NCBI RefSeq assembly: GCF_008831285.2 | Contig: NC_045145.1 | Location: 24,676,802-24,740,801, forward strand | Direction of reading: 5' to 3' | DNA: 64,000 nt | Source: Nymphaea colorata | Taxonomy: Eukaryota > Streptophyta > Magnoliopsida > Nymphaeales > Nymphaeaceae | In this document: in pieces, positions 16,134 to 61,014 of the stretch | Layout of the letters: each line of letters begins with the position of its first letter | Position numbering within the stretch: the first letter of the stretch is position 1 | Notes under the pieces: model-generated | Seen by the model: only the letters and a program-made list of their open reading frames with translations | What the model was told of the DNA's origin: nothing | Databases searched by the model: none | Translations under genes and position numbers: made by a program

Positions 16134-16149
16134 CAGGGATTAGATTCCA

Positions 16150-17240: not shown

Positions 17241-17243
17241 ATA

Positions 17244-18020: not shown

Positions 18021-18026
18021 TCATAA

Positions 18027-21373: not shown

Positions 21374-21477
21374 GTCACTCTCTTCAATTTGTGGTCACCG
21401 TCGATGTTGTGTGAGATTTTGCAACAGCTCACCAGTGGCGCCGTGCGTCGATCGGGTCCCCACCATGCATGAAAAAC

Positions 21478-21494
21478 CTGTCTCTGACACCAGT
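21478..21494 (-). other. primer binding site next to the LTR
   Basis: On the minus strand the sequence after the LTR reads TGGTGTCAGAGACAG. It resembles the TGGTATCAGAGC sites complementary to initiator tRNA-Met, separated from the LTR end by two bases. This fixes the LTR boundary and the element's direction. Confidence 0.6.
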
Positions 21495-21876
21495 TGATCC
21501 GTATGAGGATTTGTTGAATCGGTCTCTCACCCAGACGCTAGCAAAATTTCCAGTGCCAAAATGACGAGGACCATAAGGCAAAACGCAGGATTTTCTCTCT
21601 TCTCCAAAAAAATGGAGAGGCCACTTACTCTTTTCTTTATTTTTCCTGCTTTCAGGTGCCTCCCTTCTGCGAGGCTTATAGCTGGGTGTATAACCACCCA
21701 TGAGTCACGTCTCCAAGGGCTCCCACAAAATTGGGGCCTCATGGGTGACACACATCTCCAAGGGCTTCCACAAAATCGGGCCTCATGGGCTACAATCTCT
21801 CTAACCACCAACCACTTGCTTTAGGTGCTGCCATGTTCTCCAACGTTTTCCAACTTGTTGGGCAAGTCCTGTGACA
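21495..21876 (-). repeat. single 382-bp LTR of the gypsy-like element
   Basis: On the minus strand it runs from TGTCACAGGACTTGCCC (21876) to CGGATCA (21495), with TG...CA ends and the primer binding site immediately inside. It contains a short direct repeat (CTCCAAGGGCT and CCCACAAAAT, at about 21712 and 21750). No partner LTR occurs near 19560, in keeping with truncation. Confidence 0.65.
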
Positions 21877-21910
21877 GGTGTCAAATGGTTGCTAGCTCGT
21901 AGACCGGGTC

Positions 21911-22777
21911 TTACTCCCGGATCAGTCTGAAATCAAGCGGAACATCCATGCACACCCGAGCGAAACCTAGTTTGTCCCTGTGCATCGTGCATTCATCTGC
22001 TCTAATGAAGGAGGCACCCATCCCCCTAGCAATAGCTTTAAAGCTATACAAATTCCTAAACAAAACTGGAAGTTGAGGAAGACGAATCCACAAAGGGATC
22101 GATTCCTTTTCATTCAGGCGTAATTCTGTACCTGGCTTCCAATGACTGGTAATCAGAAGCCGACCCCCAACTACCCATTTTCTGTACATTACCTCTCTGA
22201 GCTCTTCCGCAGAACTCACCTGCACCAAGAATCTCCCACTCCCAATAATAGAAAATGTTGGACTGTTTACTTTAATCCAAAGCTTTCGCAAGGCCTGGAA
22301 AACATACCTGTAGTCCATGCCCGTGCTCATTCTACCTCCTTAAAAGCCAGCTACTACCGCAAACCGATATTGCTCCTCCATTTTCTGGTACCCCTCAGCA
22401 GGGAAGACCACCGTGGGTTCATCGCCAGATCTGTCCACAGTCGCCACCGGGCACTCCTGAAAATCCAACTCCTGGCTACCAGGAACAACGCCTGCCCACC
22501 CTTTTAAATTCCTCATTTGAGGGGTGGTTGGAGCATCACCTTCGCCCTGCTGCATATCCTTGTCACCGCTATCTTCTTCCATTCTGTGCAGGTTGGAGTT
22601 GTCGCACTTTGCTAAGCTCCTTTGGGTTGATCCATCCGTGCTCCCCAGGTCTGGAAACTCACCCCTATTGTCGAGATGCATCAGTCCGCCGATTCCCATC
22701 TCCCCAGCAAGCTTTCCCTTTCCCACTCGATGCCCTAATCTTCTCCCCTCAGAGCTTCTCTCTCCTTCGATTTCCAT
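21911..22777 (-). pseudogene. LINE ORF1 (DUF4283-type) with one in-frame stop
   Basis: Two adjoining open stretches read as one frame broken by a TAA at about 22340-22342. The N-terminal part ends EEQYRFAVVAGF, and after the stop the frame continues RMSTGMDYRYVFQALRKLW. The DUF4283 core follows: SGRFLVQVSSAEELREVMY, LLITSHWKPG, IPLWIRLPQLPVLFRNLYS, AIARGMGASFIRADE and FARVCMDVPL. DUF4283 is typical of plant LINE ORF1 nucleic-acid-binding proteins, often followed by a CCHC knuckle. The knuckle, endonuclease and RT are absent because the frame is cut by the LTR element, whose LTR begins only 35 bp away. Nested insertion is inferred. Confidence 0.75.
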
Positions 22778-37554: not shown

Positions 37555-38365
37555 TAAGTTGGCAAAATGAATAAAGAAGACAATTAAATCTAAATTAAAT
37601 AAATAATAACAAATTCCCAAACGAATAAATGTGATGGGTGGGGTTTCGTTCAATCCAGTATTCAATCTAACTTTGCCTTAATGGTTTGAGAATGGTTGAC
37701 TTTCTCATTCTCTTTTCTTTTTTCTTTTACCTATTATTATTTTAGCTCATGTTCTCCATATGTTTGTTTCTTTTCAAGCCAGCCATTCTTTGTTAATTTT
37801 GTTTCTTTTTAGACTTACAACTGTTTGGTTTTTTTGTACTAAGGGCTTCATATTTAATATTGTTGTATCCGATCGACCTGTTATCACATGAAATCTTCTC
37901 ATAGTTGTACTTGGTCTCTACCGCTTGCTTTCGAAGCCATTTGACGAAAGCAATAGTTTGTTTTTGTTTTATGCATTTACCTCAAAAATTGAAGTAGGTT
38001 CATAAAACAATATGAAATAATGTTCGATGAATGTGCTCCACCCATTCGAGCAGATTTGTGGAACAATAACACGCTGTTCTTATTGCCAAATATAAGAGAT
38101 TCATGAAACTATAATATGTTGTTCTTATTACATAACAACCCCTTCATGATGAGTAGGCTGAATTACGTAGTCAGGAGGAAGTTCACGATATGGTGATAAA
38201 TTAAATTCTTTGTGTCCTGTGTTTTATGAACTTTTAGATTTTTTCTTATTCTTTCAATTGATTTTTTTCCCAATAACTCAGGTACCCTGCTATTCAATTG
38301 GTTTTTTTTTTATCTTGACAAAAATTGCAGGTGGCCACATGATGCAAGGTCTGTGAGATTAACTA
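37555..38365. other. unassigned AT-rich DNA
   Basis: Nothing recognised; no gene, inverted repeat or terminal motif seen. Confidence 0.4.
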
Positions 38366-38369
38366 GGGA

Positions 38370-38740
38370 TTTTCAATGGATCGGATTGAATCATATATAC
38401 TTATATTGACTTTTAAATATTCATATACTCAGATTCAAATTCATACTCAAATATGAACAAAGAAAAAACAAACCTGAATCCAAATCTGAAATCCGGTTTT
38501 ACAATCTAAATCTGATTTTTTACATTCATATCTGAATCCAATTCCGAATTTTTTAGCCGAATCTAACCGATTTCCAAAATGTAAGGGCATTGGATATAGA
38601 ATATTCATTTAAAAACTAAATCATATTTGAATGTCAATTCAGTCGGATGTTTATTCGTGTCAAATCCAATCAAATGTCATTTCTTAAATCTGAATCCAAT
38701 CCAACTTTTTGATCGGATATTAAATCGTTTTCAATATTCA
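38370..38740. repeat. GGATTC-type dispersed repeat, copy 2 (inverted)
   Basis: It carries ATCAAATGTCATTTCTTAAA (about 38677-38696), the complement of the core seen at 26414, plus many TGAATCCAAT and TCAAATTC words. Confidence 0.7.
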
Positions 38741-39559
38741 ATCTTTTTAGAACGGTTCGCTTAGATATCAAAATGGTTTCTTTTCAAGGATAGATGTTCT
38801 AAAAGAGGCAGGTGACGAAAATCAATAAAAGGATGGCCTTAGAAACTGTTATTTGTAAGATCAAGAACTTGTAAAAAGAAGAGGTGGTTGATGTCAATGA
38901 GGTCCAAAGTAAGCAACTACCCTTTAGGCACTACGACTGCATGAAACTCAATTCCAATTGCAGAAGGAGATGGTGGAATTCCAATTTTTTGGGTCTTTGG
39001 TGAAGAAAAACGTGAAAAAAACATTTTTTTCTCTTTTTTCTAATATTTTTATTTTGTCATGTTTTTCAATAAAAAATGTTTTTGTCCTATCTTACTGATT
39101 TATTTTTTGCATTTTTAATGAATATTTAAAAAAAAAGCACATTTTTTTATCACCAAGATTTAAAAAAGTGTCATAGAAAAAATTGTAAACGTCGACTTTA
39201 ATGCATATTGTATGGCTCATCATGCCCTTAATTTGGACAAGCTTGCTTTCGGTATGACGTTACTTGTACTGGAGAAGTTGAAAGGGGAGACCTTTCAATG
39301 CGAATTGGTCATGGCTTCCAAAAACAAACAGATAAAAGGACGGCTTGATTTGAAAAATGACAAATCAAAGGCGATGACTGTCATTTTCATATCAGTTGGA
39401 TCTGATTGTTTCTTATTATGAACTCGTGAGTAATACTAAGGGTGAATTTTGGTTTTTAAATAGATAAATAAATAAATAATATATATACATATATGAATGA
39501 CTAGTAAGAAATGGACGTAAGAATGTTAATATAACTAATTTGGATTGGAGATCTCAAAC

Positions 39560-39945
39560 CATTATGTAAAAAATCAAATATGAAAAAAACAATTAATATA
39601 CAATTAAAAAATTGGATCAGATTTGGATTTAAGAAATGACATTTGATTGAACCTAGATTTATATACAAATATAATAAATATCTGATTAGACTCAAATGCA
39701 AATAGAAGTTCAATTTTATTTTTAGATAAACATCATATACCTAATTCTCTTACAGGCCCAATTGGTTCAATTGGATTCAGATTCAAAAGTAAATGTAAAA
39801 ATTGGTTTAGAACTGTCTTATCGGATTTCGGATTAAAATCAAACATGACTATTTTTTATTCATATTTGAATCCAAATATGTAAACAACCCAAAAGTTAAA
39901 GATATTTTTTCATTCTATTCCAATCGGTTGGCATCCCTACACGAA
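39560..39945. repeat. GGATTC-type dispersed repeat, copy 3
   Basis: It contains ATTTAAGAAATGACATTTGA (about 39628-39647) and TTGGATTCAGATTCAAAAG. It ends GGTTGGCATCCCTA, matching the terminal CATCCCTA of copy 1. Confidence 0.7.
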
Positions 39946-39961
39946 CACACCATACTTTATG

Positions 39962-40260
39962 TAGGGGTGGGCATTGGGTCAAGGTTGGCCCGTTGGGCCC
40001 AGGCCCGGGCCAGATACATGAAACCTGGGCCCCGGCCCTGCCAGGTTATAAATAAAAAAAGTATTTTTTTTAATGTCATATATATTTTTCAGTAATAAAA
40101 TATATTTTATTAAATTTAAAAAAATAAAAAAATCACTTTTTAAATGTTAACACGCAAGTGCCAGGTTTTTTTGGCCCAGACCTAGGCCAGTGCCGGGCCT
40201 GGTCCTGGCCCCCGCCAGCGGCCCGGCCCGGAGCCCGACCTTAACTTTGTGATGTGCATT
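39962..40260. mobile_element. hAT-like MITE with GC-rich arms and AT-rich centre
   Basis: The left end TAGGGGTGGGCATTGGG and the GGCCCG-rich arms are complementary to the right arm (GGCCCGGCCCGGAGCCCG). The centre (about 40050-40155) is nearly pure A/T. TAGGGGTGG ends are common in plant hAT non-autonomous elements. The right end is degraded (GATGTGCATTGG). Related element at 48826-49145. Confidence 0.6.
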
Positions 40261-40535
40261 GGCTAGTACAAATTGGAGATGTAACTGTATTTATTTATTT
40301 ATTTACTTATTTGAATTACATATTCAAACAACTACATGGTTAGAAGAAGAGTATGGAATCTGATAACCGAAACTGGTTGAAGTGGCCGATCCGTAACTTG
40401 ACAGACAAATTTAAAGGGTTGGATTCAACACTTCTATACTAGATGGTTGAATGGCTACACATTAGAATTCTGTTGCTACAACACCATAAACCGCTTACCA
40501 TAAATTATTGTCACACCATCAACCATCGTTAATAC

Positions 40536-40538
<3 letters not shown>

Positions 40539-40592
<54 letters not shown>
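40539..40592. repeat. (TA)n microsatellite
   Basis: About 27 uninterrupted TA units followed by TGTA repeats. Confidence 0.95.
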
Positions 40593-40603
<11 letters not shown>

Positions 40604-40652
40604 AAGCACAGGTCACCAGTAATGCTTTCCTGTACCATCATTGTTGGCATCA

Positions 40653-40839
40653 TGGGCAGAGCCAAAAGGGGGCGGCAAAAGCCTTCCCCTCCTCTCCTTC
40701 CACCCAAAAAAAAAGGTTACATATAATTTTAAAAAATTATTTTATATAAAAATATTTAAAAATAATGATTTGGCTCCTATCAAAATTTTAAAATTATAAT
40801 TTGACATATCTCATGAAAAAGTTTTGACTGCACCCCTCA
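40653..40839. mobile_element. 187-bp short element with perfect 9-bp target-site duplication, second copy
   Basis: TTGGCATCA flanks it at 40644-40652 and 40840-40848. The left end TGGGCAGAGCCAAAA and the complement of the right end (TGAGGGGTGCAGTCAAAA) are imperfect inverted repeats. The interior is AT-rich with ATTTAAAAATAATGATTTGG. It is related to the unit at 29373 by its ends, its AT interior and its target-duplication length. Confidence 0.75.
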
Positions 40840-40856
40840 TTGGCATCAAGATAAGG

Positions 40857-41300
40857 TAAGGTATTTGCATCAAAAGCTACGGGTTTCTTTTTTTTTTTTT
40901 TTGCAGGAGGGGGTCGTCTTCTTTTCTAGAGAGAAACATGGTGGGGCGAGTCCAAATGCTAGTTCCCCTACAAAACGTTATCTGATCTTTATGGTAGGAC
41001 TGCCTACCTAACGTGTACACACACAAATACATACACATGTATAAAGGCAGAAATGAATCTTCTTGTGTACAGGGAAATCAAATATGTCAGATTTTGGGTA
41101 GTTAAAAATTAAAAACTATCACTTAAACATAATTGTCACCTAAGTACTATGAATGATTTATGGTGCAACAAGATTAAAGGAGGTTTGAGTAATAATTGAT
41201 TTTTAATGATTAGCTATCCACCAACATCTAACATCTGGTAAATTTAAAACTTCCTATAGCCAATTGTTTCCTTTTCTATTTTCATTGTTCTTTTTGCACT
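40857..41300. repeat. diverged third copy of the start of the 3.5-kb duplicated unit
   Basis: It shares AAGGTATTTGCATCAAAA, GAAATCAAATATGTCAGAT, TAAGTACTA, ATGATTTATGGTGCAA and GATTGATTTTTAA with 41828-42185 and 45355-45720, in the same order. Divergence is far larger than between the two main copies, so this is an older duplicate that lacks the peptide gene. Confidence 0.75.
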
Positions 41301-41467
41301 CTCCGCCCCGATTCCATCTCTCTCTCTAGCGCAACCGCTTGGGTTGGGTGGTGTGTTAGAGTCATATCCTCAGTTCAAAAGTTAAATGGTGCTATCTTGA
41401 TTGTATTGAAAAATGTTGAGATTAAAATTATGGGAGTCATTGTGGAGGCAATGTAAACCTGTTCTTG

Positions 41468-41469
<2 letters not shown>

Positions 41470-41511
<42 letters not shown>

Positions 41512-41566
41512 TTATTTATTTATAATATATATATATATATATGTTTATAATATATATATATATATC
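41470..41566. repeat. compound (TA)n/(TTTA)n microsatellite
   Basis: TA units to 41508, TTTA units to about 41521, then TA units again with a TGTTTA interruption. Confidence 0.95.
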
Positions 41567-43103
41567 ATAAATTCAAAGTAATAAATCATAAAAAGAAATC
41601 TTGGTCTCTTCCTTGCGTCATGGTAAAGAAAATCATATGAGACTCGACTGAGCAGCCAGAGGAGGCAAGTGTGTATGGTATGAGCAATTGCGTATGCAAG
41701 CCCACAAAAAAAATTCATATTTTTATATTGATATGTTAGAAATTTTTTTCTCATTTAGATACTAGTGCCTATAAAAATTTTAAAAATTTTATATCTAGTG
41801 CCTCTTAGTAAGAAATTTTCACTATCAAAGGTATTTCCATCAAAAACAAAGTTTCATTTTTTTTTTTTTTGCAAAAGAGGGTTTGCCTCCTTCGAAGAGA
41901 AAGAATTGTCCTGTCCTCATGATAAGACAGCCTGCCGAATATGTAAACACACAAACACATTACTGCATATATAGGTGGAATTGAATCATCTTGTATATGG
42001 AGAAATCAAATATGTCAGATGAAGTAAAAAATCGTTGCCACATAAGTACTACCAATGATTTATGGTGCAAAAAGATTCATGGAGTTTTAGTAATGATTGA
42101 TTTTTAACGCTTAGCTATCTAACGACATTCAACATTTGGTGAATTTAACCTGTTCTATTTTTCATTGTCTTTTTCATAACGTTATCTTATAACAAATTAA
42201 AGTAGAGAGATAGTGAAAAGGATGAACACTTCACCAACTTTTTTATATGGCATTCCCATTCTTTTTTTATCACACTTTTCAAAGCTTTCCAAGCTTCTTT
42301 TAGGTTGGGTTTGATGGCCTCGTATAGCTGAGACTTGACATTGCATAAAAGGGTGTTTTTTAGGAGATTCTCATTTTATTATACATGTTCAAAGTCATGG
42401 ATTTAAGATCGGAAGTCTGATCTAAATCCATGCATCTAAAATCTTAAGAATCTCATATCACCAGGGATTTATCATCAGGTTAAACAAACACAACCTTACT
42501 AAAAGCTTTAGTCTCTATGGTTTTTCCAATGAGAAATGGTTTATAAAAAGAGAGGGGGGTCCTACGTCAAATTAAATTTTTTTTTTCAAATTGAGTTCCT
42601 CCTTGAGCCCTTGGGCCGGCCAGTTGGGCCAGAGTATTTCCAGCATATTAGGCTTAAAACTTGGCTTGGCCCCAGTCCAGTCCCGGTGAAATAGTTTGTT
42701 TGTTTCATGAACTTGCCTTAAAGATTGTACTTGACTTATAAAGTGATTTGAGTTTGGCAATAATTCTAGGTAAGCAGTATAAAATTTTATTCTACCGTAG
42801 GAGAGACTAAGGTTCCACCTAGCATCTCATTCATTTTAGGGTATAGGGCTTGCTTTCAGTTTCTTGGAATACCTATCCTGCCATGATTTAAATTGTATTT
42901 CAGTACCCAGCACGATACACATATAAAGTTAGCGAATAGTCTAAAAAAAGTAAATAAAGCAATAATTGAAAGTACCGACATTCAACAATTATCATTATTT
43001 TTACTCAAGTTCTTCATGTAAATTTTCTAAATTGTACGAAAGCTCTTGATTCCAGAGTTCCCGTGTTTGAGCTCAAACCCTTGAGCCTGCAGCTTCGTTT
43101 CAC

Positions 43104-43111
43104 TATAAATA
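43104..43111 (+). promoter_or_regulatory. TATA box of peptide gene copy 1
   Basis: TATAAATA lies 60 bp before the start codon in a sequence conserved with copy 2. It is a normal distance for a short plant 5'-UTR. Confidence 0.7.
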
Positions 43112-43163
43112 GTCACTAAGGCAGGCACCTGGGCCACCGTGCCCCTCTCCATCACCAAATTTA

Positions 43164-43382
43164 ATGGCTTCCCTTTCCCGTTCGTTCATCCTCTTCCTCG
43201 TTCTGGCACTGGTTGCAACTGCTCTCGTTGAGCAGGGATCAGCAATCGATAGCCACCACAGTCCTGATGAGACTGGTTGTGTTGTTCTCCCCAAGGGATG
43301 CAATCCACAGGCTGCACATGCTGGTCACTCGACCAACAGGAAGATGAAGGAACCCCTCCTGTCAAGCTCTCCGACTCCCTGA
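43164..43382 (+). CDS. small secreted peptide precursor, 72 residues, copy 1
   Basis: It probably encodes a secreted, possibly processed peptide. The first about 27 residues form a clear signal peptide (MASLSRSF, then FILFLVLALVATAL and a cleavage-like VEQGSA/ID). The mature part of about 45 residues is His/Pro/Lys-rich with two cysteines (C39, C46), a GCVVLPKGC segment and a Ser/Pro tail ending LSSSPTP. The start is the first ATG after a TATA box, and the frame is conserved in the tandem copy. Against copy 2 there are five base changes: three replace residues (R6H, G38D, N47D) and two are silent. I do not recognise the family. IDA-, CEP- or SCOOP-type signalling peptides are only loose analogies, and two Cys could form one disulfide. 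It is the best candidate for a functional gene here, together with its paralogue. Confidence 0.7.
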   Translation: MASLSRSFILFLVLALVATALVEQGSAIDSHHSPDETGCVVLPKGCNPQAAHAGHSTNRKMKEPLLSSSPTP

Positions 43383-43486
43383 TGATCAGTCCTCCTTCAG
43401 TTTCACCACCGCTGCTCAATGACTTCAGATCATACCAAGTGAACCCATGTCTTCCCACTCTTAAGAATTTATACTACAGATATTTC

Positions 43487-43557
43487 ATATATATATATTA
43501 TATATATATATTATATATATATATATATAATATATATTATATATATTATATATATAT
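43487..43557. repeat. AT dinucleotide tract in the 3' region of peptide gene copy 1
   Basis: 71 bp of ATAT/TTATAT. The corresponding place in copy 2 (about 47095-47172) holds different, templated sequence and only a short remaining (AT)n. Confidence 0.9.
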
Positions 43558-46500
43558 CCGGCTTGCAGCGATGGCCATTATGTTGGGTTTGTTCCTGTTG
43601 TAAACGTGTTGGTCAACGACTCCAATATTACAAGCACAGAGTTTCTCTCTCTCTCTCTCTCAGATGCAGGATTCTAATCAGCAGTTTCGACCCCATTCCC
43701 CAAAGTGAGCCTTGAATATCAGCAGAAAATAGAGAACAAAGCTGGATCTCAGGATCGCTTGAGCTAATTTTCTTACGTTGGTTGATTCCCAGAAATCTGG
43801 AGAAACAAAGCTTCCTTTCTTTCAAGAATGATCAACTGTTAGGTTAAATGATTTTACGCCCTTGAGAATAATATACGGCCGATATGGGTGGGGCATTGAT
43901 TGACAGGCCATTCCATCTTCTTTAGTTATCTAAGCTGCAACTCCAACCCTGTCCTTGTCCGTTGGTGTCATGGCTTTGCCCCTTTGTGAATGATGCCTCA
44001 CGTGTCAAGTCTTTTTCTAAAATAAAGTTGAATATGACATGCAAAATATGAAATCCATATGAAAGGGGCAGTTTGTTTTCATTTTACATTATTTTCCCAA
44101 TTACTGGAGTTTTCCTCTTGGTCCTTGCGAGGGCTTTACTTTTTGACTTGGCGACTAAGTTCAAATATCTGACTGGAACTTCTTCGTTTTTTCGATGTTT
44201 TGGTGGAAAAAATAAAACAAAATCACTTTGAGGAAAACTGTGAAGAAACTAACAGCAATGCATGGAACAAAGAGAAAAAAATTTATTTTAAGTGTTAACG
44301 AGCTGCTCCGGTGAGATAGGGGCAAAGTAAAATATAATGTTCCATATCAAAGTTTCCAAGCTGTTTTAAGCACTGTCCCATGCAAAAAAAAAAAAAAAAA
44401 AAAATTGTGCACTCGAGATATAATGTTCGGAATACCCCTGATCAGTCAAAATGGGAAACCTTTCTAAGGAGAAAAAATAGGTAGTAAAAAAGTTGAATGT
44501 CCAACAAAAACTTCCTTTTTTTTTGAAAAATCTCCAAAAGGCCCAACTTCCCCTTCTTTTGCTTTTGGGTGCATATCTGACACTCTCTTCAGTAACAGAA
44601 TCTTTCATCTACCCAAAGTTACATATACAGAGTTTAGGTTCTGTGTGGAGCTATATAGTGTTGGGCCAGAAACACATCTGCAAGAGTTTGTATTTTTTCC
44701 TTTCCTTTTACTGCCCGCCTCATGTTGGGGTATTTTACCTCTGAAGACTTTGTCAAGTTTTAAAAATTTCAAGATGTACTCATAATCGAAATCGGTACAA
44801 GAAAGCATGGGCATCTATAGTGTGATTAATATTGATGGAGAAGATCCAAAACAGTGGCGTATGAATATTATGATGCCGATGTTTATTGTCCTCATGATTT
44901 TGATCATGATGGTGGTATATTGTGACTTGTGAGTGCAGTGACGGTTGTTTAATATATGCAGTGACCAAGCAATGCAATAGTTTTTTTTTGTTTTTTCTTC
45001 TTTTACACTGAGGGGCACTTGATCGAGCTTAAGTCTGGCGTGGGCACCATGCGTAATTTTGAGTGCACTTAATAAAGTTTTGATTTGCGGTTATCGGCAC
45101 ACCATCCCCCATGTATCTCCTCTGCTCAGGCCAAAAGATTGTTTAAAGACTGCAAAGTAGATATTCTTCCTGTTAAGACGTTGAATTGACCAAACGAGTG
45201 GATTTAAGTTTGCTTGGGCATCGGGTCGGCCTGGCCTGACTTGGAAAACCGAGTCCGAGCCTAAGCCCTGCCCAATTAAATTTAAAAATATATAATTTTG
45301 ATATGAAATAATAAATTTATATCTAGTGCCTCTTAGTAAGAATTTTTCACTATCAAAGTATTTCGATCAAAAACAAAGTTTCATTTTTTTTTTTTTGCGA
45401 AAGGGGGTTTGCCTCCTTCGAAGAGAAAGAATTGTCCTGTCTTCATGATAAGACAGCCTGCCGAATATGTAAACACACAAACACATTACTGCATATATAG
45501 GCGGAATTGAATCATCTTGTATATGGAGAAATCAAATATGTCAGATAAAGTAAAAAATCGTTGCCACATAAGTACTACCAATGATTTATGGTGCCAAAAG
45601 ATTCAAGGAGGTTCTAGTAATGATTGATTTTTAATGCTTAGCTATCTAACGACATTCAACATTTGGTGAATTTAACCTGTTCTATTTTTCATTGTCTTTT
45701 TCATAACGTTATCTTATAACAAATTAAAGTAGAGAGATAGTGAAAAGGATGAACACTACACCAACTTTTATATGGCATTCCCATGGGTTATTATCTCTAC
45801 TAGGAGATGGAAAAGGACTAAAATACCTTTCAAAAAAGGGATGGTTTCTTTTTTTATCACACTTTTCAAAGCTTACCAAGCTTCTTTTAGGTTGGGTTTG
45901 ACGGCCTCGAATAGCTAAGACTTGACATTGCATAAAAGGGTGTTTTTCAGGAGATTCTCATTTTATACATGTCAAAGTCATGGATTTAAGATCGGAAGTC
46001 TGATCTTAAATCCATGCATCTAAAATCTTAAGAATCTCATATCACCAGGGATTTATCATCAGGTTAAACCAACACAACCTTAATAAAAGCTTTAGTCTCT
46101 ATGGTTTTTCCAATGAGAAATGGTTTATAAAAAGAGAGGGGGGCCTACGTCAAATTACAGTTTTTTTTTTTAAATTGAGTTCCTCCTTGTTGGGCCGGGT
46201 CAAGTTCCCTCTAGCCCTTGGTCCTGGCCAGTTCGGCCAGAGTATTTCCAGCGTATTACGCTTAAAACTTGGCTTGGCCCCAGTCCAGTCCCGGTGAAAT
46301 AGTTTGTTTGTTTCATGAACTTGCCTTAAAGATTGTACTTGACTTATAAAGTGATTTGAGTTTGGGAATAATTCTAGGTAAGCAGGGATAAAATTTTATT
46401 CTACCGTAGGAGAGACTAAGCTTCCACCTAGCACCTCATTCATTTTAGGGTATAGGGCTTGCTTTCAGTTTCTTGGAATACCTATCCTACCATGATTTAA

Positions 46501-46713
46501 CATGTATTTCAGTACCCAGCACGACACAAATATAAAGTTAGCGAATAGTCTAAAAACAAGTAAATAAAGAAATAATTGAAAGTACTGACATTCAACAATT
46601 ATCATTATTTTTACTCAAGTTCTTCATGTAAATTTTCTAAATCGTACGAAAACTCTTGATTCCAGAGTTCCCGTGTTTGAGCTCAAACCCTTGAGCCTGC
46701 AGCTTCATTTCAC

Positions 46714-46721
46714 TATAAATA
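46714..46721 (+). promoter_or_regulatory. TATA box of peptide gene copy 2
   Basis: TATAAATA lies 58 bp before the ATG, in the same context as copy 1. Confidence 0.7.
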
Positions 46722-46771
46722 GTCACTAAGGCAGGCACCTGGGCGACCGTGCCTCTTCATCACCAAATTTA

Positions 46772-46990
46772 ATGGCTTCCCTTTCCCATTCGTTCATCCT
46801 CTTCCTCGTTCTGGCACTGGTTGCAACTGCTCTCGTTGAGCAGGGATCAGCAATCGATAGCCACCACAGTCCTGATGAGACAGATTGTGTTGTTCTCCCC
46901 AAGGGATGTGATCCACAGGCTGCACATGCTGGTCACTCGACCAACAGGAAGATGAAGGAACCCCTCCTGTCAAGCTCTCCGACTCCCTGA
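46772..46990 (+). CDS. small secreted peptide precursor, 72 residues, copy 2
   Basis: Tandem paralogue of the frame at 43164, same length and signal peptide. It differs by His6, Asp38 and Asp47, giving ETDCVVLPKGCDPQ around the two cysteines. The change of Gly and Asn to Asp on both sides of the Cys pair makes this copy more acidic. Promoter and 5' leader are nearly identical to copy 1, but the 3' region is rearranged (see 47095-47207), so transcript ends and stability may differ. The family is unknown. The intact frame after an otherwise indel-rich duplication supports coding function, though the duplication may simply be young. Confidence 0.7.
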   Translation: MASLSHSFILFLVLALVATALVEQGSAIDSHHSPDETDCVVLPKGCDPQAAHAGHSTNRKMKEPLLSSSPTP

Positions 46991-47094
46991 TGATCAGTCC
47001 TCCTTCAGTTTCACCACCGCTGCTCCATGACTTCAGATCATACCAAGTAAACCCATGTCTTCCTACTCTTAAGAATTTGTACTGCAGATATTTC

Positions 47095-47207
47095 ACAAAC
47101 CCAACATAATGGCCATGGCTGCAAGCTAGCACCTCGTTCTGGCACTGGTTGCAACTGCAGATATATATATATCCGGCTTGCAGCCATGGCCATTATGTTG
47201 GGTTTGT
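47095..47207. repeat. templated filler: 32-bp inverted repeat plus patch of gene sequence
   Basis: 47095-47126 is the exact reverse complement of 47176-47207 (32 bp). Between them, 47132-47158 is an exact 27-bp direct copy of 46804-46830, part of the signal-peptide codons of the peptide gene ~330 bp upstream. The rest is a short (AT)n. Copy 1 has only an AT tract at this place. Confidence 0.95.
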
Positions 47208-48825
47208 TCTTGTTGTAAAAGTGTTGGTCAACGACCTCCAATATTACAATCACGGAGTTTCTCTCTCTCTCTCTCTCAGATGCAGGATTCTAATCAGCAG
47301 TTTCGACCCCATTCCCCAAAGTGAGCCTTGAATATCAGCATTAAATAGAGAACAAAGCTGGAGCTCAGGATCGCTTGAGCTAATTTTCTTACGTTGGTTG
47401 ATTCCCAGAAATCTGGAGAAACAAAGCTTCCTTTCTTTCAAGAATGATCAACTGTTAGGTTAAATGATTTTACGCCCTTGAGAAAAATATACGGCCGATA
47501 TGGGTGGGGCATTGATTTACAGGCCATTCCATCTTCTTTAGTTATCTAGAATGCAGCTCCAACCCTGTCCTTGTCCGTTGGTGTCATGGCTTTGCCCCTT
47601 TGTGAATGATGCCTCACGTGTCAAGTCTTTTTCTAAAATAAAGTTGAATATGACTTGCAAAATATCGAAATCCATATGAAAGGGGCTTTTTGTTTTCATT
47701 TTACATTATTTTCCCAATTACTGGAGTTTTCCTCTTCGGTCCTTGCAAGGGGCTTTACTTTTTGACTTGGCGACTAAGTTCAAATATCTGACTGTAACTT
47801 CTTCGTTTTTCGATGTTTTGGTGATAAAAAATAAAACAAAATCACTTTGAGGAAAACTGTAAAGAAACTAACGGCAATGCATGGAACAAAGAGAAAGAAA
47901 ATTTATTTTAAGTGTTAACGAGCTGCTCCGGTGAGATAGGGGCACAGTAAAATATAATGTTCCATATCAAAGTTACCAAGCTGGTTTTATGCACTGTCCC
48001 ATGCAAAAAAAAAAAAAATTGTGCACTCGAGATATAATGTTCGGAATACCCCTGATCAGTAAAAAGTGGGAAACCTTTCTAAGGAGAAAAATAGGTAGTA
48101 AAAAAGTTGAATGTCCAACAAAAACTTCCTTTTTTTTTGAAAAATCTCCAAAAGGCCCAACTTTTCCTTCTTTTGCTTTTGGGTGCATATCTGACACTCT
48201 CTGCAGTAACAGAATCTTTCATCTACTCAAAGTTACATATACAGAGTTTAGGTTCTGTGTGGAGCTATATAGTGATGGGCCAGAAACACATCTGCAAGAG
48301 TTTGTATTTTTCCTTTCTTTTTACTGCCCGCCTCATGTTGGGGTATTTTACCTCTGAAGACTTTGTCAAGTTTTAAAAATTTCAAGATGTACTCATAATC
48401 GAAATCGGTACAAGAAAGCATGGGCATCTATAGTGTGATTAATATTGATGGAGAAGATCCAAAACAGTGGCGTATGAATATTATGATGCCGATGTTTATT
48501 GTCCTCATGATTTTGATCATGATGGTGGTATATTGTGACTTGTGAGTGCAGTGACGGTTGTTTAATATATGCAGTGACCAAGCAATGCAATAGTTTTTTT
48601 TTGTTTTTTCTTCTTTTACACTGAGGGGCACTTGATCGAGTTTAAGTCTGGCGTGGGCACCATGCGTAATTTTGAGTGCACTTAATAAAGTTTTTGACTT
48701 GCGGGTATCGGCACACCATCCCCCATGTATCTCCTCTGCCCAGGCCAAAAGATTGTTTAAAGACTGCAAAGTAGATATTCTTCCTGTTAAGACGTTGAAT
48801 TGACCAAAGTGGATTTAAGTGAGCT

Positions 48826-49145
48826 TGGGCATCGCGGCCTGGCCTGACTTGGAAAACCGAATCCGAGCCTAAGCCCTGCCCAATTAAATTTAAAAATATA
48901 TAATTTTAATATGAAATAATAATTAATATAATTAATTATAATAAAATATTGTGTATATATATATATAAATTAATAAAATTTTTTAAAAATAACTTGTTGG
49001 GCTCGAATCGGGCTTATCCGGCCCACCCGGGCCAGCCCCATAACGACTCGGGCTGGCCCGGGTCCATTTTTCTCGTGCTCGGGCCCGAGTCAGGCCGGGT
49101 GCCGGGTATCCGGCAACAGCCCGACCTGGTGCCCTGCCTCAGCAT
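48826..49145. mobile_element. hAT-like MITE with GC-rich inverted arms
   Basis: The left arm GCTTGGGCATC...GGCCTGGCCTG pairs with the right arm, whose complement reads GGCAGGGCACCAGGTCGGGC. The centre, 48885-48995, is almost pure A/T. The left ~90 bp is also present at 45220-45313, truncated by the segmental duplication. It is related to 39962-40260. Confidence 0.65.
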
Positions 49146-49351
49146 GTATAAACCGGCCCAATATGCCCCACTGCTTGTCCTTCCGACGCAAATGTTGCTG
49201 AGAGAAAATTTTGTCGTTCGTTTGCAGTGGCAGCCAATACCATTATGATGTTCCAGTGGATCTCCCAAAAAACTTTGATGATTTGGGGGATTTGATATTC
49301 TACCAACTTTTGGTATCCAAGGAAAAACTTCAACCATGTGGATAGCTGCCC

Positions 49352-49470
49352 CACTACAAAAAATTGGTATTTTACCAATGGCCAGGAAACATTGGTAAAG
49401 GAGGAAAGAACATCAGTAAAAATTTTACCGTCGTTTAGTCGGGACATCAGTTAAGAGAATATTGGTGAAA
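49352..49470 (+). mobile_element. CACTA (EnSpm)-type terminus
   Basis: CACTACAAAAAATTGG at 49352 is a canonical CACTA left end. It is followed by repeated subterminal words related to ATTGGTAAA and TTTACCG. No matching inverted right end was identified, so this is one end or a solo fragment. Confidence 0.45.
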
Positions 49471-50099
49471 ATGTCACCGACTTTTCAAAGCTGTCAAAAA
49501 GTAGGACTTATGCAAGATTTCCAGAAAAAAATGGTGGAATTTGTAGTTTCTAACCCTAAAACAAATTTAATTATTATATATCTTAGTCATTTCATCTATG
49601 AATGGAATGGCGTACTGGACAGGGCAGGGGCTGGTAGCGGGTTCAAGTTCTCATGGCATCAACTCCTTGTGTTGTAAAAGGAAGCACACCAATATGCAAA
49701 TTGAATCATATCACAAAAACAAACCTACCACTCTAGGAGGAAGGAGGAAAAGGGTGAAAGGCTTCAACTTTCAACCCAGCAGTAAAATGAAATACTCATC
49801 TAGCTCACAACAGATGTACTTCGGCCACTTCTCCTATGGAAAAGTAGCTTGTCACCTTGAGCAATACTCGTATGCAGCATTTTTTTGCCAGAGGATGGGA
49901 TGGACAACTGAAATAGCAACTATGGAACAATGGCAGGTAATCTAGGGGCTGAGAAGCACATGGATGTAATCTCATTGTCACCAAACAAGGTAATGAACAT
50001 GAAAATGACGTTTATAGGAAACATTGGTAAATGACTTTATAGGATTTATAATTTCTGAACAACTCTTCCTATCTCTCACTGCAAAAGAAGAAATGTCTA

Positions 50100-50450
50100 T
50101 ATCAAATCTGAATCCAAATTTGAATATAATTCAAATCCTAGGCAAATCTGATTGTCAAATTCACATCTAAATCTGAGTCTGACTTTTAAACAGACTGAAC
50201 CACTTTATAATATGTCCGGAACGAACTTTCAAATGGATGGATATCAAATAGAGGAGATTTATTTAACATGAATCTGAAATCGATTCCAAATCTGTTGAAA
50301 TATTTAGTTAAATCTGAATCTGAATACGATCATGTGTTATTTCTTAAAGCTGTATTTGGTCCGACTGATTCAGATGATAATTTGTTATATAATCCAATTC
50401 TTTTAAAGTAGTTAATTTGGTCAGATATATGATCCAAATTGAATTTATTA
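50100..50450. repeat. GGATTC-type dispersed repeat, copy 4 (inverted)
   Basis: Many AATCTGAATC and TCCAAATTTGAAT words, with GTGTTATTTCTTAAAGCTG at about 50333, a decayed version of the core. A (TG)n tract follows at about 50475-50493. Confidence 0.6.
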
Positions 50451-50603
50451 ACACTTATATAGATGATATATATATGTGTGTGTGTGTGTGTGTATCATTA
50501 TGTCAATTATGTGTTTCTTGTGGAGCATCCGATTTTTTTATCTGACGTTCCTTGTTACTTAAAAAAGTAAAAGTAAAAAACAAAATAGTTGAGGCGGCAG
50601 CTG

Positions 50604-51409
50604 TAGGGCTGCACACAAGCAGAGTCAAGCTCGAGCTCAGATCTAGTCATGTTTAGTCAGCTCGAGCTCGACACAAGATCCATAACTCGAACTCAAACTC
50701 GAAATTGACTCGAGAGACTGTGTTTGAGCTTGAGCTCGACTCGTGGGCTCGTTTTAACTCATTTATCCTGTATGTTTTCCCCAGAAAGCATAAACTATTC
50801 TACATTGTGTTTCATCTCTGAAGTTAGAACTCAATGCAGGAACACCCAATTTCCAGAAACCCAAAAAGAACACATACAAAAAATAAAAAAGGACTGTAAT
50901 GTATCCCAACCGACACATACAACAATCCTGGAAGAGAAACTTGAGGGGCTGCTTACCTTTGGTCATCTGCCACCAACGGAGGAGGAAATGTAGGGTGAAG
51001 ATAGATGAGAGAAAAAATGATAAGGGAAAGCGTGGGTGAGGAGAGAAAAATGAGAGGGAAAACGAATGAGGTTGATTGATTGAAAAGAGTAATGATGAGG
51101 GTAGGTGGTGGGTGTAATGATGAAGGTAAGAGGAAGCATGGGTGAAGAGAGAGAAAAGGAAATGAAAAATTCAAAACACGTAAAGAAAGCAATGAGAAAA
51201 AAAATAATAAAAAGTTTGTAAAATTTAACAAACCAAGCAAAAAGCCCAGCTGAGTCGAGTCCAACCAACTCAAACTCGGCTTGCTAATATATTCGAGCTT
51301 ATATTTAAGCTCGAGCTCAACTCATACAGAAAACGAGTGGAACTCGAGTCAGGTTTACTCGAGTGAGTTCGAGTTGAGCCCAAGTTGGCTCGACTCTTTG
51401 TGCAGCCTA
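50604..51409. mobile_element. 806-bp non-autonomous hAT-like element
   Basis: The left end TAGGGCTGCACACAAGC and the right end CTTTGTGCAGCCTA (complement TAGGCTGCACAAAG) form terminal inverted repeats. They are flanked by GGCAGCTG (50596-50603) and GTCAGTTG (51410-51417), a 6/8-matching 8-bp target duplication. Subterminal regions are packed with AGCTCGAG and ACTCGA words, typical of transposase-binding arrays. The interior (50780-51230) holds purine-rich non-coding DNA; no transposase seen. Confidence 0.7.
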
Positions 51410-51959
51410 GTCAGTTGTGACCATGAATGGGGAGAAACTGTCACCTCCCTTTGACGGTGTTGGCAACCATTGGCTCAAAACCACCGGGGACATCGGCGAC
51501 ACATTAACAAGAAGAAATCGTCGCCTCCTCCTCGCTGTGTTGGAGAACCACCGGCGGGCAATAGCAGAGCTACCTTGTGGCTGGATTGTATGATAACGGA
51601 TTGTATGCCAACACTAGACTCAGGCCTAGCTATATGCAGGGCCCACACCAGACTTAGGCTGCTGTCCCGTAGTCCAATATGCATTCATTCCATCGCAATA
51701 ATAAGATGTATTAGTGCCCCTCTTCCACCACTACACTCAATCGTCTATTGTCATCTTGAATAGGTCTAACCAATTTGCAAGGGCAGAAATTAATCTCGCT
51801 CTCATGTTTCAGATTTTGCTCCCAAAGCTATCCACATACAGAATAACAATCAACTACAAAGTTGAGAAATTGTTTAACACCTCAAAAGTTTAATCCTTTA
51901 TATGTAAGATTACGAAGAATTTTGAAAGACTTATAAAGGAGGCTGTTAAGTGATTGATT

Positions 51960-57410: not shown

Positions 57411-57513
57411 GGGCTACGTGGCCATGAGAACGCCATTAATGTGATCAGCCATGTCATGGTTGTGCAAGATTAACAATTTTTTTTAAAAAAGACACCGTTT
57501 CTCAAAGATAATC

Positions 57514-57521
57514 TATAAAAG
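57514..57521 (+). promoter_or_regulatory. TATA box of the receptor kinase pseudogene
   Basis: TATAAAAG lies 70 bp before ATG 57584. An upstream in-frame ATG at 57527 lies only 6 bp after it and would precede the expected transcription start, so 57584 is preferred. Confidence 0.6.
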
Positions 57522-57583
57522 GGGCTTTGATTCCTTATCATGGTTATGCAGGCACAGAATTACCACCAACAACTTCGGCTGGT

Positions 57584-60154
57584 ATGGCTGCAGCCAGTTT
57601 GTCACCTTTTCCCATAAGCTTTCTTCTGTGTTGCTTCCTTACCTTGACTATAGTGCTTGGCGAGGAAGAGGTATCACCAGCTTTTGTTTCTCTAAGCAAT
57701 GTGACCGATGAATTTGCATTGCTATCCTTCAAATCCCAGGTAACCAGAGACCCCTACAATGTACTCTCAAACTGGAACTCAAACATTTCCTTCTGCCAAT
57801 GGAATGGAGTTTCATGCAGCCGTAGTTCACAAAGGGTTGTTGCTCTGAACCTCACCGACAAGGCACTTGAAGGTACCCTCTCCCCATACATCAGCAATCT
57901 CTCCTTCTTGCAAGTTCTTCATCTTATCGTTGATTTTAGCCGCCTCCCTTCATTGAAAATACTTTCCATATGGGGAAACCATTTTAAAGGGTTAATTCCA
58001 CAAACACTAAGCCATTGTCAAGGTCTCCAAACACTGTCAGCAGCGGGCAACCAATTCTATGGAAGCATCCCAAAGTTTCTAGGCAGTTTGTCAGAACTCA
58101 AGTACTTAAACATTGGTGGTAATAGGCTCACTGGCACCATTCTAGTTGCTTTGGGTAATCTCTCAAAACTGGGGTGGTTTTTTATCAGTGAAAATCAGAA
58201 ACAGGGGAACATTCCTTCTAAGTATGGAAGCCTAACCCACTTGATGGCCTTTAGCATGCAAAGGAACAATCTCACTGGTACACTGCCTGAGAGCTTGTTT
58301 ACCTATCCGCTCTTTGGGGTTTGAGTTTCATGACCAATCAACTAACAGGCATCTCCCAAAAGATGCTGGCTGCTTCCTGCCCAATCTCCGATGACTCTAT
58401 ATGCATATAAATAATTTTGATGGCCCTCTCCCAGCTTCTCTTTCTAATGCTACAAGACTTCAAGTTCTTAGTGCAGAAAGCAATAAATTTAGTGCTCAGA
58501 TACCATTAGAATAGGTAGTCTGTCACAACTCAAGTACCTTTCACTTGGGGAAATACGTTGACCAATGTCCCTGGCAACCGAGAGCTCTCCATTCTCACAT
58601 CCTTCACTAGGTGTCGGATGCTAGAGGAACTTTATCTATCACAAAACCTTTTGAACGGCATTCTTCCTACCTCTGTTGGAAACCTGACAGCCACCTTGTC
58701 GAAACTTGACCTTTCCTCTAATCAGATTGAAGGTACTATCCCATTAGCCCTAGCCAACTTGACCAAGTTAATTTCCTTAAAGTTGAGTTCCTACAAAATA
58801 AAGGGCTCATTACACCAAATATAGGACAGATGCACAGCTTATAGGTGTTGCTTCTTGACAACAATGCATTAGAAGGCCCAATCCCACTATCATTCTACCA
58901 GTTGGTCTGCATGTATGCTCTTGATATTGGACACAACATGCTAATTGGGTCAATTTCAAGCTCTATAAACAATCTCATTAGTTTGTACAGGCTGTATCTA
59001 AGTTCAAACAATTTGTCATCAACACTACCGCCTCGTCTTTGTGAGTTGAAGGACTTGTGGGAGCTATACTTGCAGGACAACTCCTTCACTGGTCACCTGC
59101 CATTGGGTATCGGGAATTTTATCATCATGGACCATATGGATATCTCTGCAAACAAGCTGAGTGGAGAATTGCCTGCATCATTATCAAAGCTCCAAATGCT
59201 AGAGTATTTGAATCTCTCTCAGAACACATTTGATGGTCGCATTCCTGAACAACTTCATCACATGCTAAGCCTTGGCACTATTGACCTTTCCCATAACAAG
59301 CTTTCTGGTGAGATACAAAATCATTGGAGAAACTTCAATACATCCAGGTCTTGGACTTGTCCTTCAATCTATTGGAAGGAGAGATTCCAAGTGGTGGAAA
59401 GTTTGCAAACCTTTATGTCGAGTCATTCCTAGGGAACTATGCACTACGTGGAGCTCCCAAATTCCAAGTCCCATTGTGCTTACACAAAACAGAGAGACAA
59501 AGTAAGAGAAATGTAGCTGAAGTCATTGTCACTTGCACAATTGGAGGCTCAACACTTTTGGTCATTGTTTGGACACTCATTGGTATCTCATGCTATAGAA
59601 AGAAGCGGTTGTTGAAACATCCCAATGACATTGAAAGGTTACAAGAAATTACAGTTCCGATGATTTCTCACAGAGAGTTAGTGCACGGAACGAGCAACTT
59701 CAGTAATGCAAATTTTCTTGGGAAAGGTTTGGTTCAGTGTACAAAGGAATTCTAGCGGATCGAACGACAGTGGCTGTTAAGGTCCTTAATTTGTTATTTG
59801 AGGGAGCATCTAAAAGTTTTGACATCGAGTGCACTGTCATGCGCCAAATCAGGCACCGAAATCTCGTGAAAGTCATTGCGTCTTGCTCTAGTAGAGATTT
59901 CAAGGCTTCAGTTCTCCAATACATGCCCCTTGGGGGCCTAGAAGTCTATCTAGATTCAGATGGCCATCACTTGAATCTCGTTCAGAGATTGGATATCATG
60001 ATAGATGTGGCTTGTGCTCTAAAATATCTTCACCATGGTTACTCGGAGAACATGACAGCATACGTCAGCGATTTTGGCATTGTAAAGATTCTAGTTGGTC
60101 AGAATTATTCTACTCTTACAGCCACTCTGGGAACCACAGGGTACATTGCACCAG
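57584..60154 (+). pseudogene. LRR receptor-like kinase pseudogene (Xa21/EFR/FLS2-like, LRR-XII)
   Basis: The intact family comprises plasma-membrane receptors for microbial patterns with a non-RD cytoplasmic kinase. In order: signal peptide (MAAASLSPFPISFLLCC), LRR N-cap (TDEFALLSFKSQV, SNWNSNISFCQWNGVSC), and about 15-20 LRRs (NLSxLxxLxLxxNxLxGxIP). Then come a transmembrane helix (STLLVIVWTLIGISCY, about 59547), a juxtamembrane part and the kinase (FLGKG, VAVKVLN, HRNLVKVIASCS, YVSDFGIVK, GTTGYIAP). Exon 1 ends CCAG/GTATGT at 60154, the intron position usual for this subfamily. Lesions: TGA at 58322, stops around 58410 and 58508, a stop near 58822, frame changes near 59320 and 59727. The kinase goes from HHGYSEN straight to MTAYVSDFG, so the HCDLKPxN catalytic loop is deleted. 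LRR numbers are also reduced near 57930. The second exon was not found; a gap lies 760 bp on. Confidence 0.9.
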
Positions 60155-60413
60155 GTATGTATCTCTTTTTATTTTTGTCTTTTTATAAATTTGTGTTTCA
60201 CGAAGTGTGAGTATAATTGCCTGAACCATTTCTTGAGTCAACGTGACCTCACTTTGAGTTCTTATATGTGTGTGTGCATGTGAACACATTCTCTTCTCTT
60301 CAATTCACAGAGAAAGTGGAAGAGAGGATGGGATCACATGAGAGGGGCTGGAGAGGTCATAAGGTGAGATAGAAAGACAAAGAGAGAGTGGGTGGGTTTG
60401 CCAGTCCTAGTTG

Positions 60414-60914: not shown

Positions 60915-61014
60915 NNNNNNNNNNNNNNNNNNNNNNNNNNNNNNNNNNNNNNNNNNNNNNNNNNNNNNNNNNNNNNNNNNNNNNNNNNNNNNNNNNNNNN
61001 NNNNNNNNNNNNNN
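60915..61014. other. assembly gap, exactly 100 N
   Basis: A run of 100 undetermined bases, the conventional length for a gap of unknown size. It is flanked by repeats at 60685 and 61127, which likely caused the break. Confidence 1.

What the first reader, a model, noticed from the sequence alone, without database searches (positions are those of the whole stretch)
47095..47207. Templated filler DNA next to a duplicated secreted-peptide gene
Seen: in duplication copy 2 the AT tract present in copy 1 is replaced. The replacement has a 32-bp segment (47095-47126) that is the exact reverse complement of 47176-47207, then a 27-bp exact copy (47132-47158) of the gene's own signal-peptide codons at 46804-46830. 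Inference: a break in the AT tract was healed by repeated template switching, first on the opposite strand just downstream, then on the gene ~330 bp upstream. This is the signature of polymerase-theta-type end joining or replication template switching. It leaves a hairpin in the 3' part of the transcript with antisense and sense copies of nearby sequence.
Basis: partly seen in the sequence, partly recalled or inferred. Interest (0 to 1): 0.8.

Follow-up and report, generated by a model that had tools for sequence, protein, structure and literature searches.

The report
Self-copied repair patch beside peptide gene
An AT-repeat beside a small, probably plant, gene was once replaced by scraps copied from neighbouring DNA, leaving a perfect hairpin; this looks like a clean example of a known kind of mutation rather than a new phenomenon.

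Summary
47095-47126 is the reverse complement of 47176-47207 (32/32) and 47132-47158 equals 46804-46830 (27/27).

The window lies in a 407.8-Mb genome and its segment is a dispersed repeat: 25 places found (a lower bound), 24 with a readable site. 21 of 24 carry an AT tract; 3 carry the patch, identical over 141 bp. Its core occurs nowhere else in the assembly at up to 3 mismatches. So the patch is derived, arose once, and was then copied in ~99% identical segments. A one-locus assembly error is very unlikely.

The 5-nt linker is covered by a 10-bp tract from 46428-46437 (chance 0.015-0.018), and the right end, more weakly (0.07-0.18), by an 11-bp tract from 47081-47091. If both are accepted, all 65 patch bases are templated, joints overlap by 1, 1, 4, 5 and 4 bp, and the three direct tracts lie in genomic order.

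Best explanation: one episode of serial template switching in the AT tract, by Pol-theta-type end joining or fork restart; sequence cannot choose. The hairpin (z = -7.1) could in principle feed small RNAs against the family; untested. New member of a known kind.

The parts
46772..46990 (+). 72-aa ORF of copy 2 (hydrophobic N terminus, read as a secreted peptide); source of the 27-bp tract
   Evidence: ORF; no Pfam family reaches its cut-off; 72-aa ORF in 19 of 24 tract-bearing copies; signal peptide inferred from the hydrophobic stretch, not predicted by a tool
43164..43382 (+). 72-aa ORF of copy 1
   Evidence: 97.7% identical to copy 2 at DNA level
43487..43557 (.). AT-rich tract of copy 1: the unpatched state of the site
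47096..47160 (.). The templated patch (65 nt), with 47095 as shared flanking base
47095..47126 (.). Patch tract d: 32-bp inverted copy; left arm of the hairpin
   Evidence: exact reverse complement of 47176-47207
47176..47207 (.). Template of tract d; right arm of the hairpin, native flank starting 4 bp right of the AT tract
   Evidence: present in unpatched copies too; full 32 bp in L012 and L013
47126..47135 (.). Patch tract c: 10-bp direct copy bridging the 5-nt linker (probable)
   Evidence: equals 46428-46437; chance of a match this long covering the linker 0.015-0.018
46428..46437 (+). Template of tract c
   Evidence: not in the 1.3-kb stretch of copy 1 examined
47132..47158 (.). Patch tract b: 27-bp direct copy of coding sequence
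   Evidence: equals 46804-46830
46804..46830 (+). Template of tract b, inside the ORF
47154..47164 (.). Patch tract a: 11-bp direct copy running into the AT remnant (possible only)
   Evidence: equals 47081-47091; weak on its own, chance 0.07-0.18
47081..47091 (+). Template of tract a, just left of the patch
   Evidence: not in the 1.3-kb stretch of copy 1 examined
47161..47172 (.). Remnant of the ancestral AT tract
   Evidence: sequence compared with 21 unpatched sites
41781..45322 (+). Copy 1 of the tandem unit
   Evidence: self-BLAST
45309..48929 (+). Copy 2 of the tandem unit, with the patch
   Evidence: self-BLAST, (94.0% and 96.0% identity in two pieces); 2.65% substitutions over the roughly 3.2 kb used for the tree

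Best explanation
The patch is the scar of one episode of serial, microhomology-guided template switching in the (AT)n tract of copy 2. SHOWN: in this family the usual state is an AT tract; the patch is in 3 of 24 readable sites, which form one clade; it contains an inverted 32-bp copy of the flank (d, starting 4 bp beyond the tract) and a direct 27-bp copy (b). PROBABLE: the linker is a 10-bp direct copy (c). POSSIBLE: the right end is an 11-bp direct copy (a). If all four hold, no patch base is left over, the direct tracts lie in genomic order (46428, 46804, 47081) and rejoin the AT tract, and overlaps at the five joints are 1, 1, 4, 5 and 4 bp. INFERRED: DNA synthesis primed from one broken or stalled end copied these pieces in turn. 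Read from the right-hand end, the growing strand anneals by ATAT in the left flank, copies a, skips leftwards to b and then c by 5- and 4-bp microhomologies, snaps back on its own strand for 32 nt (d), and is joined to the left end. In this direction every template is a strand that ends 3' at the break, as Pol-theta-mediated end joining of resected ends needs. Read from the left, the same chain is a fork that switches to the opposite strand and then re-copies the left flank with two skips (serial slippage, MMBIR-like). The sequence cannot choose between them. The result is a perfect 32-bp stem beginning 105 nt past the stop codon. The segment was later copied, so that three loci now hold it.
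For: Exact identities. Match chain covering every patch base. 21 of 24 readable family sites have an AT tract and none of those 21 the patch. Pattern search of the assembly finds the patch core at 3 places, all with 0 mismatches, and 0 reversed-control hits. The three patched copies form one clade with full support and differ from each other by 0-0.16%, against 2.65-2.81% to the window's copy 1. The linker tract is unlikely by chance (0.015-0.018). Templates a and c were not found in the stretch of copy 1 examined, and copy 1 lacks the full 32-bp template d, which points to copy 2's own flanks. TMEJ in Arabidopsis leaves templated insertions and uses about 3 bp of microhomology on average (PMC10923293, passages read); the five overlaps here average 3.0. 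Short foldback inverted insertions at breaks, most about 5-34 bp, are documented in yeast (PMC11724301, passages read).
Against: Tract a's two extra bases fit by chance 7-18% of the time, so that switch may not be real; without it, two bases are untemplated. Templates b and c lie about 265-291 and 658-667 bp from the site, far for local end joining. Overlaps at two joints, both sides of the inverted tract, are only 1 bp, whereas the yeast foldbacks used a 10-bp imperfect inverted microhomology and were mostly under 14 bp. Two relatives (L012, L013) also contain all four template sequences, so ectopic templates are not excluded. By plain distance the patched copies are as close to L013 and L012 as to copy 1. 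The overlaps at the small tracts are partly a consequence of how those tracts were found. No experiment or read data.
Confidence: 0.85

Rival explanations
1. Stepwise origin: a tandem duplication of about 660 bp (46428 to the AT tract) later lost two internal pieces, and a separate inverted duplication added the hairpin arm.
For: The three direct tracts are in genomic order and end in the AT tract, as shrunken remnants of a tandem duplicate would be.
Against: Needs at least four mutations; none of the 21 unpatched sites shows an intermediate, and the patch is letter-perfect to its templates. It would have to fit between the copy 1/copy 2 split (2.65%) and the later copying (0-0.16%).
Confidence: 0.08
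2. Assembly error or chimaeric consensus at a repeat.
For: The site is in a repeated family next to AT repeats; there is a 100-N gap at 60915-61014 of the window; two other copies, L027 and L028, have zero-length branches and L028 lies at a contig end. The patched units of the window and of L010 are identical over about 3.2 kb, so those two alone are not independent witnesses.
Against: Same patch at three loci, one of them inverted; over 9.9 kb L010 and L011 are 99.4% and 99.2% identical to the window with 25 and 38 gap openings, L011's patched unit differs by 0.16%, and the AT tract of the window's copy 1 differs from that of the other two. No N in the three fetched loci.
Confidence: 0.03
3. 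The hairpin is a selected structure (microRNA-like or RNA control element) rather than a mere repair scar.
For: RNA fold of 47040-47260 has z -7.1. Rfam covariance models of several microRNA families match the stem with small nominal E-values (best mir-8186, E 9.7e-9, 42.5 bits; MIR4227, E 6.6e-6), and the mir-8186 alignment shares a short GCUGCAA stretch.
Against: All Rfam microRNA matches listed are far below their gathering scores (42.5 against 80 for the best), the best family hits both strands almost equally, and outside the short shared stretch the alignment is mostly pairing with little sequence agreement. I judge this the generic response of hairpin models to a perfect stem; I ran no scrambled-stem control. 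The stem is only in three recent copies and has no compensatory change to test. No expression data.
Confidence: 0.04

Closest known systems
Plant filler DNA / Pol-theta (TEBICHI) templated insertions (PMC10923293, passages read)
   Same: Insertion made of flanking sequence joined by short microhomology; the paper calls such fillers a hallmark of TMEJ and reports about 3 bp of microhomology on average
   Different: Here up to four tracts, two templated about 265-667 bp away; no loss of non-repeat flank; natural and kept in a gene family rather than induced; enzyme unknown
Foldback inverted insertions at breaks in yeast (PMC11724301, passages read)
   Same: Short inverted copy of the flank next to the break, inside the reported size range (most about 5-34 bp)
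   Different: The paper's majority is under 14 bp and primes from a 10-bp imperfect inverted microhomology; here the tract is 32 bp, has 1-bp overlaps and is part of a chain with direct tracts; the yeast events need Pol delta and end joining, untestable here
Template-switch mutations that create RNA hairpins (PMC8794818, abstract and start of introduction read)
   Same: One event creates a perfect reverse-complement stem
   Different: That model has four switch points for one reverse-complement copy; here direct tracts are added
MMBIR / serial replication slippage (PMC2621351 and PMC3597517, search listing with start of abstract)
   Same: Serial switches joined by microhomology, discontinuous duplications
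   Different: Much smaller scale; a replication origin is not shown
Inverted-duplication model of plant microRNA birth (PMC3237417, search listing with start of abstract)
   Same: Inverted copy of a gene's own neighbourhood
   Different: Stem copies the region past the stop codon, 32 bp only; no small RNA evidence

Membership tests
Templated (filler) insertion from template switching | Inserted bases match nearby sequence beyond chance | tested here: met
   32-bp and 27-bp exact tracts; linker tract chance 0.015-0.018
Templated (filler) insertion from template switching | Insertion is the derived state at a site with a known ancestral state | tested here: met
   AT tract in 21 of 24 readable sites, patch in 3 of 24, one clade; same genome only
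Templated (filler) insertion from template switching | Microhomology at the joints | tested here: inconclusive
   Overlaps 1, 1, 4, 5, 4 bp, but the small tracts were chosen for their overlap; tract a has chance 0.07-0.18
Pol-theta-mediated end joining | Dependence on Pol theta (TEBICHI) | not testable with these tools
   needs genetics
Pol-theta-mediated end joining | Templates close to the break on strands that end 3' at the break | tested here: inconclusive
   A one-direction reading from the right end uses only such strands, but templates b and c are 265-667 bp away (coordinates)
MMBIR / serial replication slippage | Several microhomology-joined tracts copied in series | tested here: inconclusive
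   two certain, one probable and one possible tract in a chain; does not separate it from TMEJ
Plant microRNA or hairpin-siRNA gene | Stem long enough to be diced | tested here: met
   32 perfect pairs, 49 nt between the arms
Plant microRNA or hairpin-siRNA gene | Match to a known microRNA family above its gathering score | tested here: not met
   best 42.5 bits against 80
Plant microRNA or hairpin-siRNA gene | Small RNAs cut from the arms | not testable with these tools
   no RNA data

The most novel reading that the evidence does not exclude
In a single mutation, one member of a dispersed secreted-peptide family gained a perfect 32-bp hairpin next to its coding region. If transcribed and diced it would make antisense small RNAs that match the same region of most sister genes: 17 of 21 unpatched sites keep at least one perfect 21-nt match to the arm. 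The patch would then be a newborn trans-silencer of its own family, caught between the repair event and its first copying.
Probability: 0.07. Interest if true: 0.7.

Novelty: new member of a known kind. Interest (0 to 1): 0.36.

Why it matters
A natural filler insertion is hard to read without its ancestral state. Here some two dozen sister copies in the same genome supply that state, bracket the event between a split of about 2.65% and a re-copying of 0-0.16%, and show a nearly complete template path. It also shows how one repair event can create a perfect hairpin beside a gene, a possible starting point for small-RNA control.

Tried and rejected
Assembly error: rejected as the main reading because three loci that are not identical to each other overall share the patch. 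Correction of an older, imperfect inverted repeat (arm homogenisation): considered because copy 1's right arm has GCAGCG where copy 2 has GCAGCC; rejected because 17 of the 21 unpatched sites printed have the copy 2 base (my count by eye; the 4 exceptions are the copy 1 lineage including L015), so copy 1 is the changed one, and none of the 21 sites shows the left arm. MicroRNA family membership: rejected (no scrambled-stem control was run). Named protein family for the 72-aa ORF: none above cut-off in Pfam (one weak DUF1218 match for copy 2, E 0.15, 13 bits against 25.3). Selection on the ORF: mean pN/pS 0.63 among 13 distinct sequences from 20, too weak to decide. Microhomology at the tandem-duplication joint: looked at by eye, nothing clear beyond AT-rich letters; not pursued. 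Species: not identified.

Rows dropped: of 25 places, 24 gave a readable site; L030 did not yield both anchors and was left out. One search warns that its counts are lower bounds. L024 and L022 are rearranged or distant and have unreliable distances. L027 and L028 have zero-length branches (their flank alignments differ slightly) and may be one sequence assembled twice, so the 21 unpatched sites may be 20. In one search the 20 sequences include L014 with one inserted base left out of the count and exclude L016, L022, L024, L025, L030 and the two partial copies as incomplete or gapped.

Full report
What was claimed and what is there. The two identities in the finding are exact: 47095-47126 against the reverse complement of 47176-47207 (32 of 32), and 47132-47158 against 46804-46830 (27 of 27). 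The 27-mer also occurs once in copy 1 at 43196. Aligned base by base, copy 1 has an AT-rich tract where copy 2 has the patch, while the sequence on both sides runs on with few differences. Of 125 perfect inverted repeats of 16 nt or more with loops up to 300 nt in the window, 123 fail a complexity and GC filter; the other two are this one (32 nt) and an 18-nt pair.

Where it lies. The window is G000:C8:24676802-24740801, in an assembly of 407.8 Mb and 783 contigs. That it is a plant is inferred, not tested. A search of the assembly with 47080-47220 gave 25 places on contigs C2, C4, C8, C11, C12, C13 and C15, a lower bound. I fetched 22 regions that hold all 25 places. The surrounding segment is itself repeated: many of these 10-kb regions match the window colinearly from about 38 kb to 51 kb, i.e. 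to their own ends.

Polarity. 24 of 25 places gave a readable site. In 21 of 24 the two flanking anchors are separated by an AT tract, sometimes with a few other letters, with 22 to 74 bp between the anchors; 3 of 24 have the patch. The three are C8:24723881 (this window), C8:24573514 and C8:24552473 (inverted), identical over 141 bp. A pattern search of the assembly with the 29-base patch core, up to 3 mismatches, found these three and no reversed-control hit. On a tree of about 3.2 kb per copy with the tract left out, the three patched copies form one clade (support 1.0) and differ by 0-0.16%. The clade of copy 1 sequences is its sister with support 0.91 on a very short branch; by plain distance the patched copies are as close to L013 (2.51%) and L012 (2.62%) as to the window's copy 1 (2.65%). 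So the patch most likely arose once, after copies 1 and 2 separated, and the tandem pair was then copied: the 9.9-kb regions L010 and L011 are 99.4% and 99.2% identical to the window, with 25 and 38 gap openings. The patched units of the window and L010 are identical; that of L011 differs by 0.16%. A further tandem pair at C8:12235192 (L015) shares the tandem arrangement, but its second copy has lost the segment from about 46908 to 48810, including the site, so it cannot say whether the patch was already there.

Fine structure. Listing exact matches of 9 nt or more between the patch and the 3.6-kb copy 2 gives a chain that leaves no base unexplained: d 47095-47126 (inverted, from 47176-47207), c 47126-47135 (from 46428-46437), b 47132-47158 (from 46804-46830), a 47154-47164 (from 47081-47091), then the AT remnant. 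The same list holds one redundant 10-bp inverted match inside d (to 45891-45900) and AT-tract self-matches. Neighbouring tracts overlap by 1, 4, 5 and 4 bp, and one base (A, 47095) is shared with the left flank. Replacing the 5-nt linker by random bases, a match of 10 nt or more covering it arises in 1.5-1.8% of trials when 1.5 or 3.6 kb is searched; it lies outside a 0.4-kb search. For the two bases that define tract a the figure is 7-18%. So c is probable and a is possible only. The sequences of a and c were not found in the 1.3 kb of copy 1 examined and copy 1 differs in the 32-bp arm, so copy 2's own flanks are the simplest source, although the relatives L012 and L013 also contain all four.

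Mechanism. Taken from the right-hand end of the AT tract, one growing strand could have annealed by ATAT just left of the tract, copied a, skipped leftwards to b and c at 5- and 4-bp microhomologies, folded back on itself for the 32-nt inverted tract d, and been joined to the left end. All templates in this reading are strands with a 3' end at the break, which is what resected ends offer to Pol theta. If each of four tracts could have fitted either end at random, agreement of all four has a probability of 1 in 8 (my arithmetic), so this is a consistency argument, not proof. Read from the left, the same chain is a replication fork that turns onto the opposite strand and then re-copies its own left flank with two skips. 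Templates at about 265-291 and 658-667 bp favour the second; the 3-bp mean overlap and the plant habit of making fillers by TMEJ (PMC10923293, passages read) favour the first. I put serial template switching at 0.85 and do not choose the enzyme.

The hairpin. As RNA, 47040-47260 folds at -82.9 kcal/mol, z = -7.1, 0 of 200 shuffles as good; the matching stretch of copy 1 has z = -2.0, 7 of 200. Rfam microRNA models match the stem with small nominal E-values (best mir-8186, E 9.7e-9, 42.5 bits against a gathering score of 80), almost equally on both strands; the alignment shares a short GCUGCAA stretch and is otherwise mostly pairing with little sequence agreement. I take this as the response of hairpin models to a perfect stem, without a scrambled control. 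The arms lie 105-217 nt past the stop codon; whether that is transcribed is unknown. 17 of 21 unpatched sites keep at least one perfect 21-mer of the right arm, so a hairpin small RNA could in principle reach most of the family.

The gene. The 72-aa ORF is present in 19 of 24 tract-bearing copies. Pfam gives nothing above a cut-off. Mean pN/pS over 13 distinct sequences (from 20) is 0.63. It is read as a secreted peptide from its hydrophobic start only.

Comparison with what is known. Templated fillers at plant breaks, foldback inverted insertions in yeast (PMC11724301, passages read) and template-switch origin of RNA hairpins (PMC8794818, abstract and start of introduction read) cover the kind of event. 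What is unusual is the number of tracts, their order, and the possibility of polarising and bracketing the event inside one genome. I made seven answered searches of the paper library for related events, not for this locus, and make no claim that this locus is unpublished.

Verdict. Observation confirmed; interpretation right in kind, incomplete in detail, unproven as to enzyme and effect. A new member of a known kind, interest 0.36.

Noticed in passing
window 38000-51500 and L009-L030: A segment of more than 10 kb carrying the 72-aa peptide ORF is dispersed (25 places found, including tandem partners, on seven contigs), several close to contig ends (C8:65 kb and 221 kb, C8:25.08 Mb, C12:20 kb, C11:24.26 Mb); the ORF is 72 aa in 19 of 24. 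What multiplied it (large mobile element or subtelomeric duplication) is unknown.
   Followed up: partly
window 57512-60207: Pieces of a leucine-rich-repeat receptor kinase gene (Pfam LRR and kinase hits) lie about 10 kb from the peptide gene, and part of it (59058-60000) is also beside the family copy at C12:19565 (L014): possible linkage of a peptide gene with a receptor gene.
   Followed up: no
L015 (C8:12230800-12240700): A further tandem pair of the unit, in which the second copy has lost about 1.9 kb (window about 46908-48810) including the patch site and the end of the ORF.
   Followed up: partly
window 15416-18021: Tandem and AT-rich arrays (periods 271, 182 and 386 bp) next to each other.
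   Followed up: no
window 19566-22339, minus strand: Ty3-type retrotransposon gag frame, a frame with a below-cut-off aspartyl protease match, and a DUF4283 frame.
   Followed up: no
L027 and L028: Nearly identical unit copies on C11:22.13 Mb and at the very end of C8 (zero-length branches; flanks differ slightly); possibly one sequence placed twice by the assembly.
   Followed up: no
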